A DNA stretch of 64,000 bases from the NCBI RefSeq assembly GCF_020042665.1, contig NZ_CP083376.1, positions 3,508,001 to 3,572,000 of the forward strand. The letters are read 5' to 3'. The notes below the pieces were generated by a model. It was not told where the DNA came from. It saw only the letters and a list, made by a program, of their open reading frames with translations, and ran no database searches. This stretch comes from Pseudoxanthomonas sp. X-1. Its GTDB lineage: Bacteria; Pseudomonadota; Gammaproteobacteria; Xanthomonadales; Xanthomonadaceae. Position numbers and translations under genes: made by a program. Below are positions 1 to 7,834 of this stretch, piece after piece (the first letter of the stretch is position 1; each line of letters starts with the position of its first letter).

Positions 1-756
1 CGAGCGGATCAGGTCCACCCCGGCCACCCCCAGCCCCAGGACCGCGGCGGCGCGCACGGCCACGGCCGCCTCCTCGTCGCTGGCGACGGCCGGATAGGCC
101 TCGCCGCCGCGATGCAGGTTGGAGCGGAAGTCGCCCTCCGGCGCCTGCCGGCGCATGGCGGCCACCACCCGGTCGCCGACCACGAAGCAGCGCAGGTCCG
201 CGCCCTTGGCCTCCTCGACGAACTCCTGCACCACGAAGCTGGCATACAGCCCGCGCAGCGCCTCGACCACCGAGCGCGAGGCCGAGGGCTTCTCGGTCAG
301 CATCACTCCGGCGCCCTGCGCGCCCTCGTTGAGCTTGATCACATGCGGCGGCGGGCCCAGCAGCGCCAGCAGGTCGGCGGTATCGTCGGGGTTGTCGCCG
401 AACACCGTGGCCGGCAGGTCGATCCCGTGGGCGGCCAGCAGCTGGTGCGCGCGCAGCTTGTCGCGCGCGCGCAGGATCGCATCGGAGGGATTGGGCGAAT
501 GGCAGCCCATCAGCTCGAACTGGCGCAGCACCGCGGTGGCGTAGCGGGTGACCGACGCGCCGATGCGCGGAATCACCGCGTCGAACCCCGACAGCGTGGC
601 GCCCTTGTAGCGCAGGTCGAAACGGCCGCGGTCGATGCGCATGTAGCAGCGCAGCGGATCGAGCACGCGCACGGTATGCCCGCGCTGGCGCCCGGCCTCG
701 ACCAGGCGCTTGGTCGAGTACAGCCGCGTGTTGCGGGAGAGGATCGCCAGTTTCAT
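1..756 (-). CDS. rimK: RimK-family ATP-grasp ligase (ribosomal protein S6 glutamate ligase), 3' end missing
   Basis: Reading the minus strand from the ATG at 756 gives 252 residues beginning [20 protein letters not shown] and still open at the window edge, so the C-terminal part (roughly 40-50 residues in this family) lies outside. RimK enzymes are cytoplasmic ATP-grasp ligases that add glutamate to the C-terminus of ribosomal protein S6 or related acceptors. Family features seen are the N-terminal preATP-grasp fold with VIPRIGAS, the [13 protein letters not shown] segment, the nucleotide-binding [16 protein letters not shown] loop, [20 protein letters not shown], and FRSNLHRGG. The end reads [12 protein letters not shown], where the metal-binding region of the ATP-grasp fold begins. 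The next gene on the left is unknown. An alternative would be a LysX-like ligase, but the motifs fit RimK better. Confidence 0.88.
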
Positions 757-1521: not shown

Positions 1522-3042
1522 CTACTGATGCGCCGTTCTCTGCAGCGCCTGCGCTTGCGACTGATGCGGGGCCGACAGGGCGTCAGCCGCCGCCGTACTG
1601 AATGCCATGGGCGTCAGGGCTCCCTCGGTCACGGACACCTGCGCCCGCCCCAGCACGGCGCCCCGATTCTCGGCGGCACACAGCAGGGTGCCTTCGGGCC
1701 CGCCTTTGTCGACCATATCGATCCTGCTCATGCCTTGCCGTTTGGACTCCACCGCCAACGCCGCTGCCAGATTCTCGCGATATTCCTGGGTCGGAAGCAC
1801 CTGCCGATTCGGATCCAGGAGGTCGATCTGGCGCATGACCTTGTCGAATCGATGATGGTCGGGATGATGCGGGTCGGAAAGCTGCATAACCGGCCCGGTC
1901 GCCGCGCGAGGATCCTGGAAGTCGATCGCGCCGCCGGCCTTGAGTCGCGAATACACCTCCATCTTGTACTGGTCCCTTCCGACGAACTCCTTGATCGCGT
2001 CGGAAAGTGCCTGCTTGTCGGCCGGACCCATCGCGCCCGTCGCCAAGAAGTGCCTGAACTCACCGGGCCGCTCCGGCTCCTCTTTCAGCGCCTCCTGATA
2101 CTGGCCCTGACCATTGAGCTCGAACTCGTGAGAGGCATTGGCGGCGCGGCTGACCAGGCGCAGATTGCTGGTCTCGTTGAAAGCATCGAGCACATCCGCC
2201 TTCTTCAAGCCCTGGCCGCCCGCGTGCTTGGGTAGCTCCTTGAGGAGTGCCTCGAACGCAATGGCATGATCGATGTCGAACGAGTCGCGGGTACAGAGCT
2301 GCTTGGTGACGGCACACTCGAAGAGCGGCACCTTCATGGTGTCGAAAGGCGCGACCGGGCGGACCACCGACGCTTCACCCCGGTAAGCGTCGCGCAAGGC
2401 GCTTTCGAACCACTTGCCCTGGACAGCGGTATCGAAGGAAAGGTCCTTGCGCGTCATTGCCGGCGTCCAATCCGCCTCAAGCGTGGCGGCCCGCCGCTTC
2501 GCGCCATCGGTTTCCGGATCGAAGGAAGCCCGGGCCGCGGATGGATCGAAGCCGAAGCGCGCTTCGCACCAGGCGCGCCATTCGGCGGACTGGGGGCCAT
2601 GTTGATCATGGACGCGATCCGCCGCGTCGCGCGCGCGGTTGACCGCTGCCGGCAGCAATCGGAGATTGCTCACATCGTTGTAGCCCATCTGGGCCTCGGC
2701 CAGGCTGTGCACGTCCAGCGCCTTGAGATGATCCTTCCACTGCACGATGTGGTCGATGTCCAACGCCTCGGGCGTATGCCAGCTTCCTTCTCTCTCGCTG
2801 TAATACAGCATCACCGGGCGATGTCCGGGCAGCGTGGCAGGCGTCGGGCTCATGTGCACCCTCGCCCAGTCGTTCCGCATGAATTCTTCGGTGGAACTGT
2901 AGAAACCCAGGCCGATGCGCGAGGCGTCCGGATCCCACGCTGCCTGCTGCAATGCGGCCCCATGTTGCGGCGGCTTCAGCCCTTCCCAATCCACGAGCTC
3001 GACCTGCTGTCCGCTCTGGAGCGTGTGCTTTGAAGCGCCCAT
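1522..3042 (-). CDS. Predicted Xanthomonadales type IV secretion effector (X-Tfe) with two HNH-like nuclease motifs
   Basis: The 506-residue protein starts at the ATG at 3042, preceded by AAGGAGAGGGTC, rather than at the longer in-frame start at 3099. Two segments share one pattern: residues 95-98 DIDH with NDVSNLRL at 122-129 and N135, and residues 256-259 DIDH with FNETSNLRL at 289-297 and N302. This D-H...N...N arrangement is that of HNH-fold endonucleases; the second copy is preceded by a C-x6-C pair (CAVTKQLC). Residues about 386-490 resemble the XVIPCD, the C-terminal domain by which Xanthomonas/Stenotrophomonas effectors bind VirD4: LSDPHHPDHHRFDKVMRQID, then GMSRIDMV, TLLCAAENRG, VSV and TPMAFS. 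The tail is glutamine-rich. The known role of such proteins is killing of competing bacteria through the X-T4SS. No T4SS gene lies in this window. Nuclease activity and secretion are inferred. Confidence 0.72.
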   Translation of the reverse strand: MGASKHTLQSGQQVELVDWEGLKPPQHGAALQQAAWDPDASRIGLGFYSSTEEFMRNDWARVHMSPTPATLPGHRPVMLYYSEREGSWHTPEALDIDHIVQWKDHLKALDVHSLAEAQMGYNDVSNLRLLPAAVNRARDAADRVHDQHGPQSAEWRAWCEARFGFDPSAARASFDPETDGAKRRAATLEADWTPAMTRKDLSFDTAVQGKWFESALRDAYRGEASVVRPVAPFDTMKVPLFECAVTKQLCTRDSFDIDHAIAFEALLKELPKHAGGQGLKKADVLDAFNETSNLRLVSRAANASHEFELNGQGQYQEALKEEPERPGEFRHFLATGAMGPADKQALSDAIKEFVGRDQYKMEVYSRLKAGGAIDFQDPRAATGPVMQLSDPHHPDHHRFDKVMRQIDLLDPNRQVLPTQEYRENLAAALAVESKRQGMSRIDMVDKGGPEGTLLCAAENRGAVLGRAQVSVTEGALTPMAFSTAAADALSAPHQSQAQALQRTAHQ

Positions 3043-3430: not shown

Positions 3431-4042
3431 ATGCGCGTCACCTTGCTCAGCACCCTCGTCGTCGCCGCCTTGGCGGCTTGCTCCAACGCAGATAAACCCG
3501 GCACGCCAGACACTACAACCGGACCTGATGCCAGCCAGCAGACGAACAACGAACCAAGACAAGGCGATGGCACGGCTGCGACAGACCTGCAGAAAACCGC
3601 CGCCAGCCCGCTCTCCGATGGCGACTCGGAGGCCCTGGGGGTTCTTTCCGCGATCAATCAGCACGAGATTGCGGCGGGCCAGCAGGCGCAGAGCCGGCAA
3701 CTGCCACCCAAGGTCGCCGCCTACGCGGCGATGATGGTCAAGGACCACTCCGAGAACGACGAACAGATCCAGCAGCTGGGACCGCCGCGCGACTCGGCAC
3801 CCGCCACGGCGCAGAAGACCAAGGGCGAAGCGGAACTTGCCGCGTTGGGCGAGCACAAAGCCGATTACGCCAAGGCCTACGTGGAGGCGATGGTGAAAGG
3901 CCATACCGAGGCGCTCAAGGCCATCGACGACAAGCTCCTGCCTCTGGCGAAGTCGTCGGAGGTAAAACTTCACCTCGAAAAAACGCGTGCCGCTGTGGCC
4001 CAGCACCTCGAAGAAGCCAAAGCGCTTCAGTCGTCCAGCTGA
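3431..4042 (+). CDS. DUF4142 family lipoprotein
   Basis: The 203-residue product starts MRVTLLSTLVVAALAACSNA, a lipoprotein signal with lipobox LAAC and Cys17. A Thr/Gln/Pro-rich linker runs to about residue 60. The DUF4142 domain (about 65-200) follows, a ferritin-like helical bundle with the recurring KVAAYAAMMVKDHSEND and VEAMVKGHTEALKAIDD helices. Function of the family is not established; members are often in envelope stress or stationary-phase contexts. It is transcribed away from the effector gene and converges on ligD. Cell-wall-targeting effectors often have lipoprotein immunity partners, but a nuclease effector would need a cytoplasmic one, so I do not read it as immunity protein. 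Confidence 0.8.
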   Translation: MRVTLLSTLVVAALAACSNADKPGTPDTTTGPDASQQTNNEPRQGDGTAATDLQKTAASPLSDGDSEALGVLSAINQHEIAAGQQAQSRQLPPKVAAYAAMMVKDHSENDEQIQQLGPPRDSAPATAQKTKGEAELAALGEHKADYAKAYVEAMVKGHTEALKAIDDKLLPLAKSSEVKLHLEKTRAAVAQHLEEAKALQSSS

Positions 4043-4183: not shown

Positions 4184-6763
4184 TCAGTCCCGTTCAGCCC
4201 ACCGCGCCAGGTTCTGCTGGATGGTATCGATGCCCTCCCAAGGATCCTTGCGGCGGCGTTTCAACTTCGCCGGCACGTCCTTGATGGTGAAGGCATTGGC
4301 CCGCGTGAGCTTGGGCAACTCGCTCCACGGGATCGGCATCGCGACCGGCGCACCGGGGCGCGCGCGCAGCGAATAGGAGGCCACGGCTGTCGCCCCGCGC
4401 CCGTTGCGCAGGTAGTCCACGAAGATCCGCTTGTTGCGCAGGCGCTTGGTGGCGGTGGCCAGGAACCGGTGTGGCTCCGACTGGGACAGTGCGTCGGCGA
4501 AGCCCTTGGCAAAACGCTTGGTCAGATCCCAGTCGCATCCCGGGTTCAGTGGCACCACGACGTGGAGGCCCTTGCCGCCCGATACGCGCAGGAAGGATTC
4601 CAACTCCAGCTGGGCCAGGAGCTTGCGGATGTCCGTGGCCGCCTTTTTGACCTCCTCGAAGGGCACGTCCGGCCCCGGGTCCAGGTCGAACACCACCCGG
4701 TCGGCGCGATCCGGCTCCTCGGCGCGACTGCCCCAGGGGTGGAATTCCAGGGCGTTGAACTGAACGAGTTCCAGCAGGCTCGCCGCATCGCGCACCACCA
4801 GATAGTGGGCATTGATGCCGCTGTCCTCTTTCAGCCGGACCGAATCGACCAGTTCTAACCCGGCGGTGTGGTGCTTCTGGAAGAAGCAGGGCCGACCGGT
4901 GCCGGCGGGGCAACGGATGATCGACAAGGGCCGGTCGATGACCTCCGGCAGCAGGTGCGGCATCACCGCTTCGTAGTAGTCCCAGACCTGCTGTTTGGTG
5001 ATCTTGTCCTCGGGGAAGAGCACCTTGCCGGGCGACGAGAGCTTGGGCGATGCGCGCTCGGCCGGCGCGCGCTTCTTGCTGGGCTTGTGGGCGCTGGTTG
5101 CCTTGGTGGCGCGTTTCGTCCCCTTGGCCGGGACCGCCGGCGTGGCCGCCTCCTCGGTCGGTCCGCGATCTGAATCCATCAGGTCCGCCACGTCCTTGTC
5201 GCGGCGCACCGTTTTCAGCGAGGCCTGGCGCAACAGCTGCTGCCCGCCAACGCCGCGGTAGAAGACTTCCACGACGAAGCGCGGCGCAAACCAGGTGGCT
5301 GCGCGCAGGTCGGTGTCGTTGGTCGGCACGTGCGCGGTGGGCGTCTTGCTCCCGGCCTTGCCGATCAGCTGGGTCAGTTCCTTGATCAGCGCATCGTTGA
5401 AGCCGGATCCGACCCGGCCGACGTAGAGCCACCCATGCTTGGGATCGGGCTTGGCCAGCAGCAGGGAACCAAAGCCTGTTCGGCTCCCCTTCGGCGCGGT
5501 GTAGCCGACCACGGCGAACTCTTCCGAGGCCAACTGCTTGGTCTTCTTCCAATCCTCGCTCCGGCCCGGGTGGTAGGCCCGGTCCGCGCGCTTGGAGATG
5601 ATGCCTTCGAAGTGGCGCTCGCCGGCCAGCCGATACGCCGCCTCCCCGTCTCCCACGACGTGGGAGCTGAAAGCCAGGTGCCCCGCAGGGCCTGTGTCCA
5701 GCAGTTCCTTGAGCAGCGCCTTGCGCTCCAGCAACGGCGCGTCGGCGACGTCCACCCCGTCGAGGTGCAGCACGTCGAACAGCGCGTAGGCGAGCGCGCC
5801 CTGGCGCTCGCCGGACAAGGTGGCTTGGAGGAGGTTGAAGTCCTCCTTCGTGCCGCTGCCTGCGATGAGCTCGCCGTCCAGCGCGCCGGATCGAAGGCCC
5901 AACGCGGCCACCGCGTCCCTGATCTCGGGGATCTTGGCCGTCCACTCCAGCGCGTTGCGGGACCAGAGGCGCACCTGGCCGTCAGCGATCGTGGCCAGGA
6001 TTCGGTAGCCGTCCCATTTGATTTCGTGGACCCACTGGTCTCCCTTGGGCGGCGACTCGCCCAGCTTGGCCAGCTGGAGCTCGAAGGGGCCATCAGGGGC
6101 CTTCGCCTGCTTGGCGTTGGACAGCGCCGCGGCCTTCTTCGCCCAATCCTTTCGACGGCCCTTCTTCGGCGCTGCAACGGCCTTGAGGCCCTTCTTGCGC
6201 TCTTTGCCACTGCCGGCCCGTTTCAGATCGGCGGCAGGGGCTTGGGTCACGTCCCCGAGCAGGTCGTCGGCTTCCACCGTGCCGGCGAAGGCGTCGTCGT
6301 CCTTGAAGAGCAGCCACTGCGGCTGCCTGGCGGGCTTGCCCGAGCGCACCAGGTGCCAGCCGCCCTTGAGCTTGGTGCCAAACAGTTCGAAGCGCAGGTG
6401 GCCCTTGGCCAGCTGCGCCTCGGGATCTCCAGAAGTCGCCCAAACCCCATGATCGAATTGGGCGACGTGACCACCGCCGTACTCGCCCTTGGGGATCTCC
6501 CCTTCAAACGTGGCGTAGTCCACAGGGTGGTCTTCCACCTCCACGGCCATCCGTTTGACCTTGGGGTCGTAGCTGGGCCCCTTGGGCACGGCCCAGCTTT
6601 TGAGGGCGTCGCCGACCTGAAGCCGGAAGTCGTAATGCCGCCGGCTGGCGTGGTGGAGCTGGACCACGAAGATGGCCCGCTGCCCCTGCGGCAGCGCCTT
6701 CCCGGGCTCGGGTTCCTTGGTCTTGTCGAAGCTCCGCTTCCGACGGTATTCGGTCAGCGACAT
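4184..6763 (-). CDS. ligD: ATP-dependent DNA ligase D (PE-LIG-POL)
   Basis: An 859-residue LigD of bacterial non-homologous end joining. Domain order is 3'-phosphoesterase, ligase, polymerase, as in Pseudomonas LigD. The phosphoesterase (about 30-170) shows VVQLHHASRRHYDFRL, EDHPVDYATFEGEIPKGEYG and WHLVR. After a lysine-rich linker the ligase domain has the adenylation motif HEIKWDGYRI with catalytic Lys249, followed by SKRADRAYHPGRSEDWKKTK. A second basic linker leads to the polymerase (from about 575) with SPGKVLFPEDKITKQQV, VVFDLDPGPDVPFEEV and SGGKGLHVVVPL. The gene lies 15 bases after the DUF3606 gene and behind xth on the same strand, so a DNA-repair operon is likely. No ku gene, its normal partner, is present in the window. 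Confidence 0.96.
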   Translation of the reverse strand: MSLTEYRRKRSFDKTKEPEPGKALPQGQRAIFVVQLHHASRRHYDFRLQVGDALKSWAVPKGPSYDPKVKRMAVEVEDHPVDYATFEGEIPKGEYGGGHVAQFDHGVWATSGDPEAQLAKGHLRFELFGTKLKGGWHLVRSGKPARQPQWLLFKDDDAFAGTVEADDLLGDVTQAPAADLKRAGSGKERKKGLKAVAAPKKGRRKDWAKKAAALSNAKQAKAPDGPFELQLAKLGESPPKGDQWVHEIKWDGYRILATIADGQVRLWSRNALEWTAKIPEIRDAVAALGLRSGALDGELIAGSGTKEDFNLLQATLSGERQGALAYALFDVLHLDGVDVADAPLLERKALLKELLDTGPAGHLAFSSHVVGDGEAAYRLAGERHFEGIISKRADRAYHPGRSEDWKKTKQLASEEFAVVGYTAPKGSRTGFGSLLLAKPDPKHGWLYVGRVGSGFNDALIKELTQLIGKAGSKTPTAHVPTNDTDLRAATWFAPRFVVEVFYRGVGGQQLLRQASLKTVRRDKDVADLMDSDRGPTEEAATPAVPAKGTKRATKATSAHKPSKKRAPAERASPKLSSPGKVLFPEDKITKQQVWDYYEAVMPHLLPEVIDRPLSIIRCPAGTGRPCFFQKHHTAGLELVDSVRLKEDSGINAHYLVVRDAASLLELVQFNALEFHPWGSRAEEPDRADRVVFDLDPGPDVPFEEVKKAATDIRKLLAQLELESFLRVSGGKGLHVVVPLNPGCDWDLTKRFAKGFADALSQSEPHRFLATATKRLRNKRIFVDYLRNGRGATAVASYSLRARPGAPVAMPIPWSELPKLTRANAFTIKDVPAKLKRRRKDPWEGIDTIQQNLARWAERD

Positions 6764-7042: not shown

Positions 7043-7834
7043 TCAGACCCTCACGGTCACCCAGGTCGGGGCGTGATCGCTCGCGTGTTCTTCCAGGCGG
7101 ACCCATTGATCCACCCCCGCCTCGACCAAGCCCCCGGCCAGGACGGGATTGAGCAGGAGGTGGTCGATGCGCAGGCCCCGGTCCCGCTCGGCGTGCTGTC
7201 GGAAGTGGTCCCAGAATGTATAGATCCGCTCTTCACCGAAGGCTTCGCGCAGGGCATCCGTCCACCCCTGCGCGACCAGGCGGTCAAATGCCTGCCGGGA
7301 CTCGGGCTGCATCAGGGCATTCTTCTTCCACGACTTCGGGTCGTAAACGTCGAGATCGGTGGGAATGACATTGAAATCGCCCATCAGGGCCACCGGATGC
7401 GGCAAGGCCACCAGGGTCTTCGCGTGCCGTTCCAGCCGCTTCATCCAGGCCAGCTTGTAGTCGAACTTCGGCCCCGGCTGCGGGTTGCCGTTGGGCAGAT
7501 ACAGGCCGGCCACCACCACGCCGTGAACGGCCGCTTCGATGTAACGGCTCTGCTTGTCGCTCGGATCCCCCGGCAAGCCGCGGCGGCTCTCGACGGGTTG
7601 CGCCTGCCTGCCCAGCAACGCCACACCGTTCCAGGACTGCTGCCCGTGCCAGATCGCCCCGTAGCCCGCCGCCTCAAGCGCCTGGGCAGGGAACGCTGCG
7701 TCGGTTGCCTTCAGTTCCTGAAGCGCGACCACGTCGGGCTTGGCTTCCTCCAACCAGTGGAGCAAGTTCGCCAACCGGGTGTTGATGCCGTTGACGTTGA
7801 ACGTCGCCAGTTTCAGGGTCCTTCGTTTTGGCAT
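7043..7834 (-). CDS. xth: Exodeoxyribonuclease III
   Basis: A 263-residue exonuclease III/AP endonuclease of the endonuclease-exonuclease-phosphatase fold. Motifs run in the expected order: ATFNVNGINTRLANL near the N-terminus, VALQELK (metal-binding Glu), LYLPNGNPQPGPKFDYKLAW, LMGDFNVIPTDLDVY, LRIDHLLLNP and the C-terminal SDHAPTW (catalytic Asp-His). Length is standard. The enzyme trims 3' ends and cleaves abasic sites. It is the first of three same-strand genes with DUF3606 and ligD, which links 3'-end cleaning with end joining. Confidence 0.95.
   Translation of the reverse strand: MPKRRTLKLATFNVNGINTRLANLLHWLEEAKPDVVALQELKATDAAFPAQALEAAGYGAIWHGQQSWNGVALLGRQAQPVESRRGLPGDPSDKQSRYIEAAVHGVVVAGLYLPNGNPQPGPKFDYKLAWMKRLERHAKTLVALPHPVALMGDFNVIPTDLDVYDPKSWKKNALMQPESRQAFDRLVAQGWTDALREAFGEERIYTFWDHFRQHAERDRGLRIDHLLLNPVLAGGLVEAGVDQWVRLEEHASDHAPTWVTVRV

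What the first reader, a model, noticed from the sequence alone, without database searches (positions are those of the whole stretch)
1522..3042. X-T4SS effector candidate with an internally duplicated HNH-like nuclease motif
Two segments about 160 residues apart both read DIDH followed by [YF]N[DE]xSNLRL and a later Asn. This suggests duplication of one HNH-like domain, fused to a C-terminal XVIPCD-like secretion signal. Tandem nuclease cores in one X-Tfe are not something I recall as described.
Basis: partly seen in the sequence, partly recalled or inferred. Interest (0 to 1): 0.72.

Follow-up and report, generated by a model that had tools for sequence, protein, structure and literature searches.

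The report
Twin-core nuclease-like T4SS effector
This bacterial gene encodes a probable weapon protein that carries two ancient copies of the same DNA-cutting-enzyme core plus a tag for injection into other cells, so one molecule might cut twice.

Summary
The minus-strand gene 1522-3042 (506 aa) has DIDH...[YF]N[DE]xSNLRL...N twice, 161 residues apart. It is a true duplication of a unit of about 107 residues: half 1 against half 2 as profiles gives probability 99.2, E 3e-19. The C-terminus is a clear XVIPCD. In 42 of 42 sequences (window plus 41 relatives, some close to each other) both DxDH...N...N...N sets are intact. First and second cores separate on one branch (support 100/99), so the duplication is older than the sampled family. 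AlphaFold predicts one rigid 312-residue unit (pTM 0.85). The unit is found in Lysobacter-type genomes, mostly with XVIPCD, twice at the start of roughly 3000-residue ORFs (one scanned: C80 protease next to it). A small same-strand ORF lies upstream in only 2 of 21 loci. The family is not wholly new: GH-E X-Tfes are listed in a 2019 review; the twin-core architecture I did not find described. Catalysis is inferred: Pfam points to HNH/EndoVII (GH-E, borderline for this protein), but Foldseek showed no HNH structure. This strain's X-like T4SS locus lacks detectable VirB8-VirB10.

The parts
1522..3042 (-). whole gene, 506 aa twin-core X-Tfe candidate
2107..3042 (-). twin-core unit, residues 1-312
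   Evidence: AlphaFold mean pLDDT 91.9, pTM 0.85 on its own; conserved as a block in 41 relatives
2632..2952 (-). first repeat, residues 31-137; motif D95-x-D97-H98, N122, N126, N135
   Evidence: profile-profile match to second repeat, E 3.4e-19; the named residues 42 of 42
2131..2484 (-). second repeat, residues 187-304; motif D256-x-D258-H259, N289, N293, N302 (H305 and E308 follow)
   Evidence: GH-E Pfam match at residues 251-308
1879..2106 (-). linker, residues 313-388, low confidence in part, with a helix 340-369
   Evidence: AlphaFold model of the whole protein
1585..1878 (-). XVIPCD secretion signal, residues 389-486
   Evidence: PF20410 E 1.4e-12; Foldseek match of the whole model to XVIPCD structure 7mu9, E 1.4e-4; phmmer to 7mu9 over residues 387-469, E 0.015

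Best explanation
An antibacterial-type X-T4SS effector whose N-terminal 312 residues are a metal-dependent HNH/EndoVII-superfamily nuclease made of two tandem, anciently duplicated cores that pack into one rigid unit; the C-terminal XVIPCD hands it to the VirD4 coupling protein for injection. Shown here: the duplication, conservation of both motif sets, the XVIPCD. Predicted: one rigid unit. Inferred: both cores are catalytic, the target is nucleic acid in the recipient's cytoplasm, and the two active sites act on one DNA molecule, perhaps one per strand, as homodimeric HNH/EndoVII enzymes do (recalled knowledge).
For: XVIPCD Pfam hit, and in 28 of 29 sequences scanned, window included (the one without must be the L062 row, which holds only the first 365 residues of a giant ORF). 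GH-E hit in 42 of 42 units at E<=1, best 1.3e-14. Halves homologous, E 3.4e-19, against 20 shuffled controls. DxDH + N + N + N intact in both cores in 42 of 42. One ancient duplication. Similar order of strands and helices in both repeats and pTM 0.85. The unit also heads a 3083-residue ORF next to a C80 protease domain, as expected of an exchangeable toxin module. A tested nuclease X-Tfe, TfdA, is a DNase of the GHH branch of the same superfamily (PMC11253643, section 8 read).
Against: Foldseek against the PDB showed no HNH nuclease for either model, among 50 of 82 and 50 of 51 rows displayed; the twin-core model had no hit at E<=0.001. Profile search of PDB sequences found only chance-level ribosomal proteins. 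For this protein the GH-E match is borderline, and the whole-genome GH-E search did not report it in the window's own genome at E<=0.001. The GH of GH-E is DH in both cores of all 42. No immunity candidate upstream in the window and in 18 of 20 relatives' loci, unlike 5 of 10 other XVIPCD genes of this genome (judged by eye); a potent cytosolic nuclease would be expected to need one. VirB8, VirB9 and VirB10 of an X-type T4SS were not found in this genome, so delivery from this strain is doubtful.
Confidence: 0.6

Rival explanations
1. Only one core (most likely the second) is catalytic; the first is a conserved structural or substrate-binding copy.
For: GH-E hits all 42 whole units but the first half alone in only 11 of 42; the second core alone has the invariant H305 and E308 after the last Asn.
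Against: The motif positions of the first core are invariant in 42 of 42; a dead copy usually loses ligands in some members.
Confidence: 0.25
2. Not a lethal nuclease: an effector that binds or modulates a target in the recipient, as LqqE1 and LtaE of Lysobacter enzymogenes are reported to do, so that no immunity gene is needed (the last step is my inference).
For: No small ORF upstream in 19 of 21 loci; Lysobacter T4SS effectors with modulatory roles exist (LqqE1: PMC10504337 passages; LtaE: PMC11253431 start of abstract, and PMC13162877 passages).
Against: Two invariant metal-nuclease-like motif sets and GH-E matches.
Confidence: 0.12
3. A nuclease that is aimed at a target the producer does not have (for instance eukaryotic prey), or that is held inactive until delivered; this explains missing immunity. 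Not exclusive with the best explanation as to the enzyme.
For: The same missing-immunity data; the same unit sits next to a C80 protease domain in a 3083-residue ORF.
Against: The XVIPCD effectors in the papers I read act between bacteria; nothing here shows a eukaryotic target.
Confidence: 0.12

Closest known systems
X-Tfe effectors with a GH-E (PF14410) domain, listed in PMC6536674 Fig. 5 legend
   Same: GH-E match and XVIPCD; the figure covers ten strains including two Lysobacter; probably the same family (inference: in 247 sampled genomes of the family, 36 of 39 GH-E hits fall in twin-core ORFs, one search compared by hand)
   Different: I saw the legend and section text, not the drawing: which species carries GH-E, and whether two cores are drawn, I could not see; no such statement was in the text read
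TfdA (Stenotrophomonas maltophilia 20845), XVIPCD DNase (PMC11253643)
   Same: HNH/EndoVII-superfamily nuclease with XVIPCD
   Different: GHH motif, one nuclease domain described, 899 aa, has a cognate immunity protein
Tox-GH-E and Tox-DHNNK polymorphic toxin nucleases (PMC3482391, Table 2 passages)
   Same: HNH/EndoVII fold in the paper; the DH, N, N, N pattern of DHNNK is met by both cores
   Different: GH is DH here; no invariant K was seen; two cores in one chain
X-Tfe XAC3266 (AHH nuclease domain, Xanthomonas citri; PMC6536674 section 14)
   Same: predicted nuclease X-Tfe
   Different: AHH branch; cognate X-Tfi XAC3267 known

Membership tests
X-Tfe (X-T4SS effector) | C-terminal XVIPCD | tested here: met
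   PF20410 48.5 bits, cut-off 24.9; structure match 7mu9
X-Tfe (X-T4SS effector) | glutamine-rich C-terminal end | tested here: met
   read by eye: five Gln in the last 14 residues; a weak feature, no statistics made
X-Tfe (X-T4SS effector) | cognate X-Tfi gene, usually upstream | tested here: not met
   none in the window; small same-strand ORF within 300 bp upstream in 2 of 21 loci, the one scanned being PepSY (L070)
X-Tfe (X-T4SS effector) | producer encodes an X-T4SS | tested here: inconclusive
   VirD4, VirB4, VirB6 families and an N0-like lipoprotein at G000 3227-3237 kb; VirB8/9/10 families only in three other T4SS clusters
X-Tfe (X-T4SS effector) | VirD4-dependent secretion | not testable with these tools
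   needs experiment
GH-E (PF14410) nuclease | match over the curated cut-off | tested here: inconclusive
   26.6 bits for residues 1-345 but 24.9 for the whole protein, cut-off 25.0; own genome without a hit at E<=0.001; 42 of 42 units match at E<=1
GH-E (PF14410) nuclease | GH motif (PMC3482391 Table 2: GH, E, N, E) | tested here: not met
   DH in both cores in 42 of 42; N and a later Glu (E308) are present in core 2
HNH/EndoVII superfamily | beta-beta-alpha metal fold | tested here: inconclusive
   strand and helix order repeated in the model, but no HNH structure among the Foldseek rows shown
HNH/EndoVII superfamily | divalent-metal nuclease activity | not testable with these tools
   needs experiment
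Tox-DHNNK | DH, N, N, N, K | tested here: inconclusive
   DH and three Asn invariant in both cores; no invariant Lys in the list; no model of this family was scanned

The most novel reading that the evidence does not exclude
A single-chain, pseudo-dimeric HNH-type nuclease effector: the duplication fixes two active sites at a set distance so that one injected molecule makes a double-strand cut, and a family of such effectors is carried without detectable adjacent immunity genes, so producers must be protected in some other way.
Probability: 0.3. Interest if true: 0.72.

Novelty: new variant of a known kind. Interest (0 to 1): 0.5.

Why it matters
T4SS effectors are thought to enter a cell in small numbers (general knowledge); an enzyme with both strand-cutting sites in one chain would need no dimerisation inside the victim. 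The strict retention of two active-site-like sets, and the apparent lack of adjacent immunity genes, give directly testable questions about how X-T4SS nucleases kill and how producers avoid harm.

Tried and rejected
Rejected: chance resemblance of the two motifs (shuffled-column controls); recent or repeated independent duplication (tree). Not found: phage or plasmid copies (no tblastn match among 50,697 phage and 72,556 plasmid records; in viral contigs 58 stretches matched a pattern, none confirmed); an antiphage-defence match (only SspE, 9.3 bits, E 0.087); NCBIfam matches; members outside the family in the samples searched (2 of 369 genomes of the class, the window's own and one whose matched ORF is a 197-aa protein with one core by eye; 1 of 398 genomes of the phylum, the window's own). 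PHROGs was not searched. The first scan of genome contigs with the single protein found nothing; the scan with the alignment gave 21 loci.

Looked for and not found: a single-core XVIPCD relative. The one candidate seen, G138 2826554-2827342, aligned over the XVIPCD and without the DIDH core. The three GH-E hits outside the twin-core set (L088, L089, L090) show one core by eye.

Literature: searches. XVIPCD occurs in 12 held papers. Of these I saw passages of six (PMC6536674, PMC11253643, PMC10989847, PMC10933484, PMC10441968, PMC6759196), with whole sections of two of them; a term search in a seventh (PMC10432156) returned no passage. The other five were seen as listing with the start of the abstract. 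Figures and supplementary files were not seen, and most subscription papers are missing, so 'not described' is limited to this.

Not answered: whether the two sites face one DNA; model coordinates were not among the files that scripts can read.

Full report
What is there. The minus-strand ORF 1522-3042 encodes 506 aa. Pfam finds an XVIPCD at 389-486 (48.5 bits, cut-off 24.9) and a GH-E nuclease match at 251-308 at the cut-off (24.9 of 25.0; 26.6 when residues 1-345 are scanned alone). The first core has no Pfam match above threshold in this protein.

The duplication is real. tblastn of residues 1-345 over the fetched loci gave 42 distinct ORFs, the window included; some are close to each other. 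Splitting their alignment (A1) after residue 170 and comparing the halves as profiles gave probability 99.2, E 3.4e-19, over residues 31-137 against 187-304, while 20 column-shuffled versions of the second half reached at most probability 1.36. So the repeated unit is longer than the two motifs: it starts with a W...R.GL.F segment, goes through the DxDH hairpin, and ends after NLR...N. Over 61 aligned positions the first and second repeats are 34% identical in the window and 41% on average over the 42.

Both motif sets are kept. D95, D97, H98, N122, N126, N135 and D256, D258, H259, N289, N293, N302 are identical in 42 of 42; the second core also has invariant H305 and E308. A tree of the 84 repeats places all first and all second repeats on two sides of one branch with support 100/99 (122 columns, and the program warns of few columns and of long branches that meet, so inner forks are unsure). 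The duplication is therefore older than the split of the sampled members. In the family-level search, matches to the unit (not only to the XVIPCD) came from 28 of 297 genomes in three genera; in the window's own genus the window's genome is the only carrier among the 18 same-genus genomes listed (counted by hand, whose tables are cut at the weak end).

Structure. AlphaFold on 29 sequences gave mean pLDDT 82.9 and pTM 0.58 for the whole protein and 91.9 and 0.85 for residues 1-312 alone, which suggests one rigid twin-core unit and a loosely attached XVIPCD. The strand-helix order is much the same in both repeats. Foldseek of the whole model against the PDB gave three chains at E<=0.001: the XVIPCD structure 7mu9, and two chains of 7r6s, named a putative bacteriophage protein of Stenotrophomonas maltophilia, whose aligned range was not shown; I take it to be the XVIPCD effector TfcB from memory. 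The twin-core model had no match at E<=0.001. So the HNH assignment rests on sequence profiles and motif pattern, not on a structural match.

Delivery contexts. XVIPCD is found in 28 of 29 sequences of the second alignment. Two relatives, both with the unit at the very N-terminus, are ORFs of 3083 and 2917 residues; the first carries a Peptidase_C80 domain directly after the unit (the second was not scanned). Named relatives from public genomes are Lysobacter species and Lysobacteraceae or Lysobacterales isolates and MAGs (21 loci). Five fetched regions carry two or three twin-core genes side by side (L044, L045, L046, L047, L050).

Immunity. X-Tfi genes are usually upstream (PMC6536674 section 14). 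With a codon-usage score trained on the window, 5 of 10 other XVIPCD genes of this genome show a same-strand ORF of 206-252 aa within 71 bp upstream with a lipoprotein-like start (L138, L140, L142, L143, L145; my reading). Of the other five, two called effector ORFs are short (L137, L139), two look miscalled (L141 on the wrong strand, L146 probably in a wrong frame), and in L144 the nearest such ORF is about 620 bp away. The same score found a same-strand ORF of 45-300 aa within 300 bp upstream in 2 of 21 twin-core loci (L070, PepSY, and L071, not scanned) and none in the window; downstream in 4 of 21 (L055, score 26.8; L058, L068, L073, scores under 8) (one place per locus; L062, the giant ORF, was left out). 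No neighbour cluster spans more than 4 of the 22 loci compared. This is a gene-finder result, so very small or oddly composed genes can be missed.

Secretion machine of this strain. The complete single-contig genome has 11 XVIPCD matches, the window's included, three T4SS clusters that I read as Trb-type conjugative systems, and one X-like locus at 3227-3237 kb with VirD4, VirB4 and VirB6 families and a lipoprotein with an N0-like domain (TcpQ match below cut-off; VirB7 by recollection). VirB10, VirB9 and VirB8 profiles matched only the three other clusters, whereas VirB10 was found once in each of 8 of 8 relatives tested, two of them of the same genus; I did not check the type of those systems, though in G158 the hit lies about 9 and 13 kb from two XVIPCD matches. 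VirB11, VirB1 and VirB2 were not searched. The window's effector may thus be stranded in this strain.

Mechanism and novelty. Most likely this is a nuclease effector with two working HNH-type cores in one chain; that both cut, and that they cut one duplex, is inference. GH-E X-Tfes are already listed (PMC6536674 Fig. 5 legend), and TfdA shows that a related superfamily branch is a lethal DNase (PMC11253643 section 8). The twin-core design and the missing adjacent immunity genes were not found described in the searches listed under Tried and rejected. I rate it a new variant of a known kind.

Noticed in passing
G000:C1 3227000-3237000 (L087), outside the window: X-like T4SS locus with VirD4, N0-like lipoprotein, VirB4 and VirB6-family genes, but VirB8, VirB9 and VirB10 families were found in this genome only in three other T4SS clusters, although 11 XVIPCD matches remain.
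   Followed up: partly
L042 2041-11286 (minus) and L043 2063-10813 (minus): ORFs of about 3000 residues that begin with the twin-core unit; in L042 it is followed by a Peptidase_C80 domain: a second carrier for the same module.
   Followed up: partly
L044, L045, L046, L047, L050: Two or three twin-core effector genes side by side in the same orientation.
   Followed up: no
L090 1498-2592 (minus): ORF with a GH-E match and one DIDH motif and no XVIPCD seen by eye (ORF reaches nearly to the locus end); a possible relative of the ancestral single core.
   Followed up: no
window 1-756 (-), 3431-4042 (+), 4184-6763 (-), 7043-7834 (-): Neighbours by Pfam: RimK-type ATP-grasp protein, DUF4142 protein, DNA ligase D, and an Exo_endo_phos endonuclease; ordinary chromosomal genes.
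   Followed up: yes
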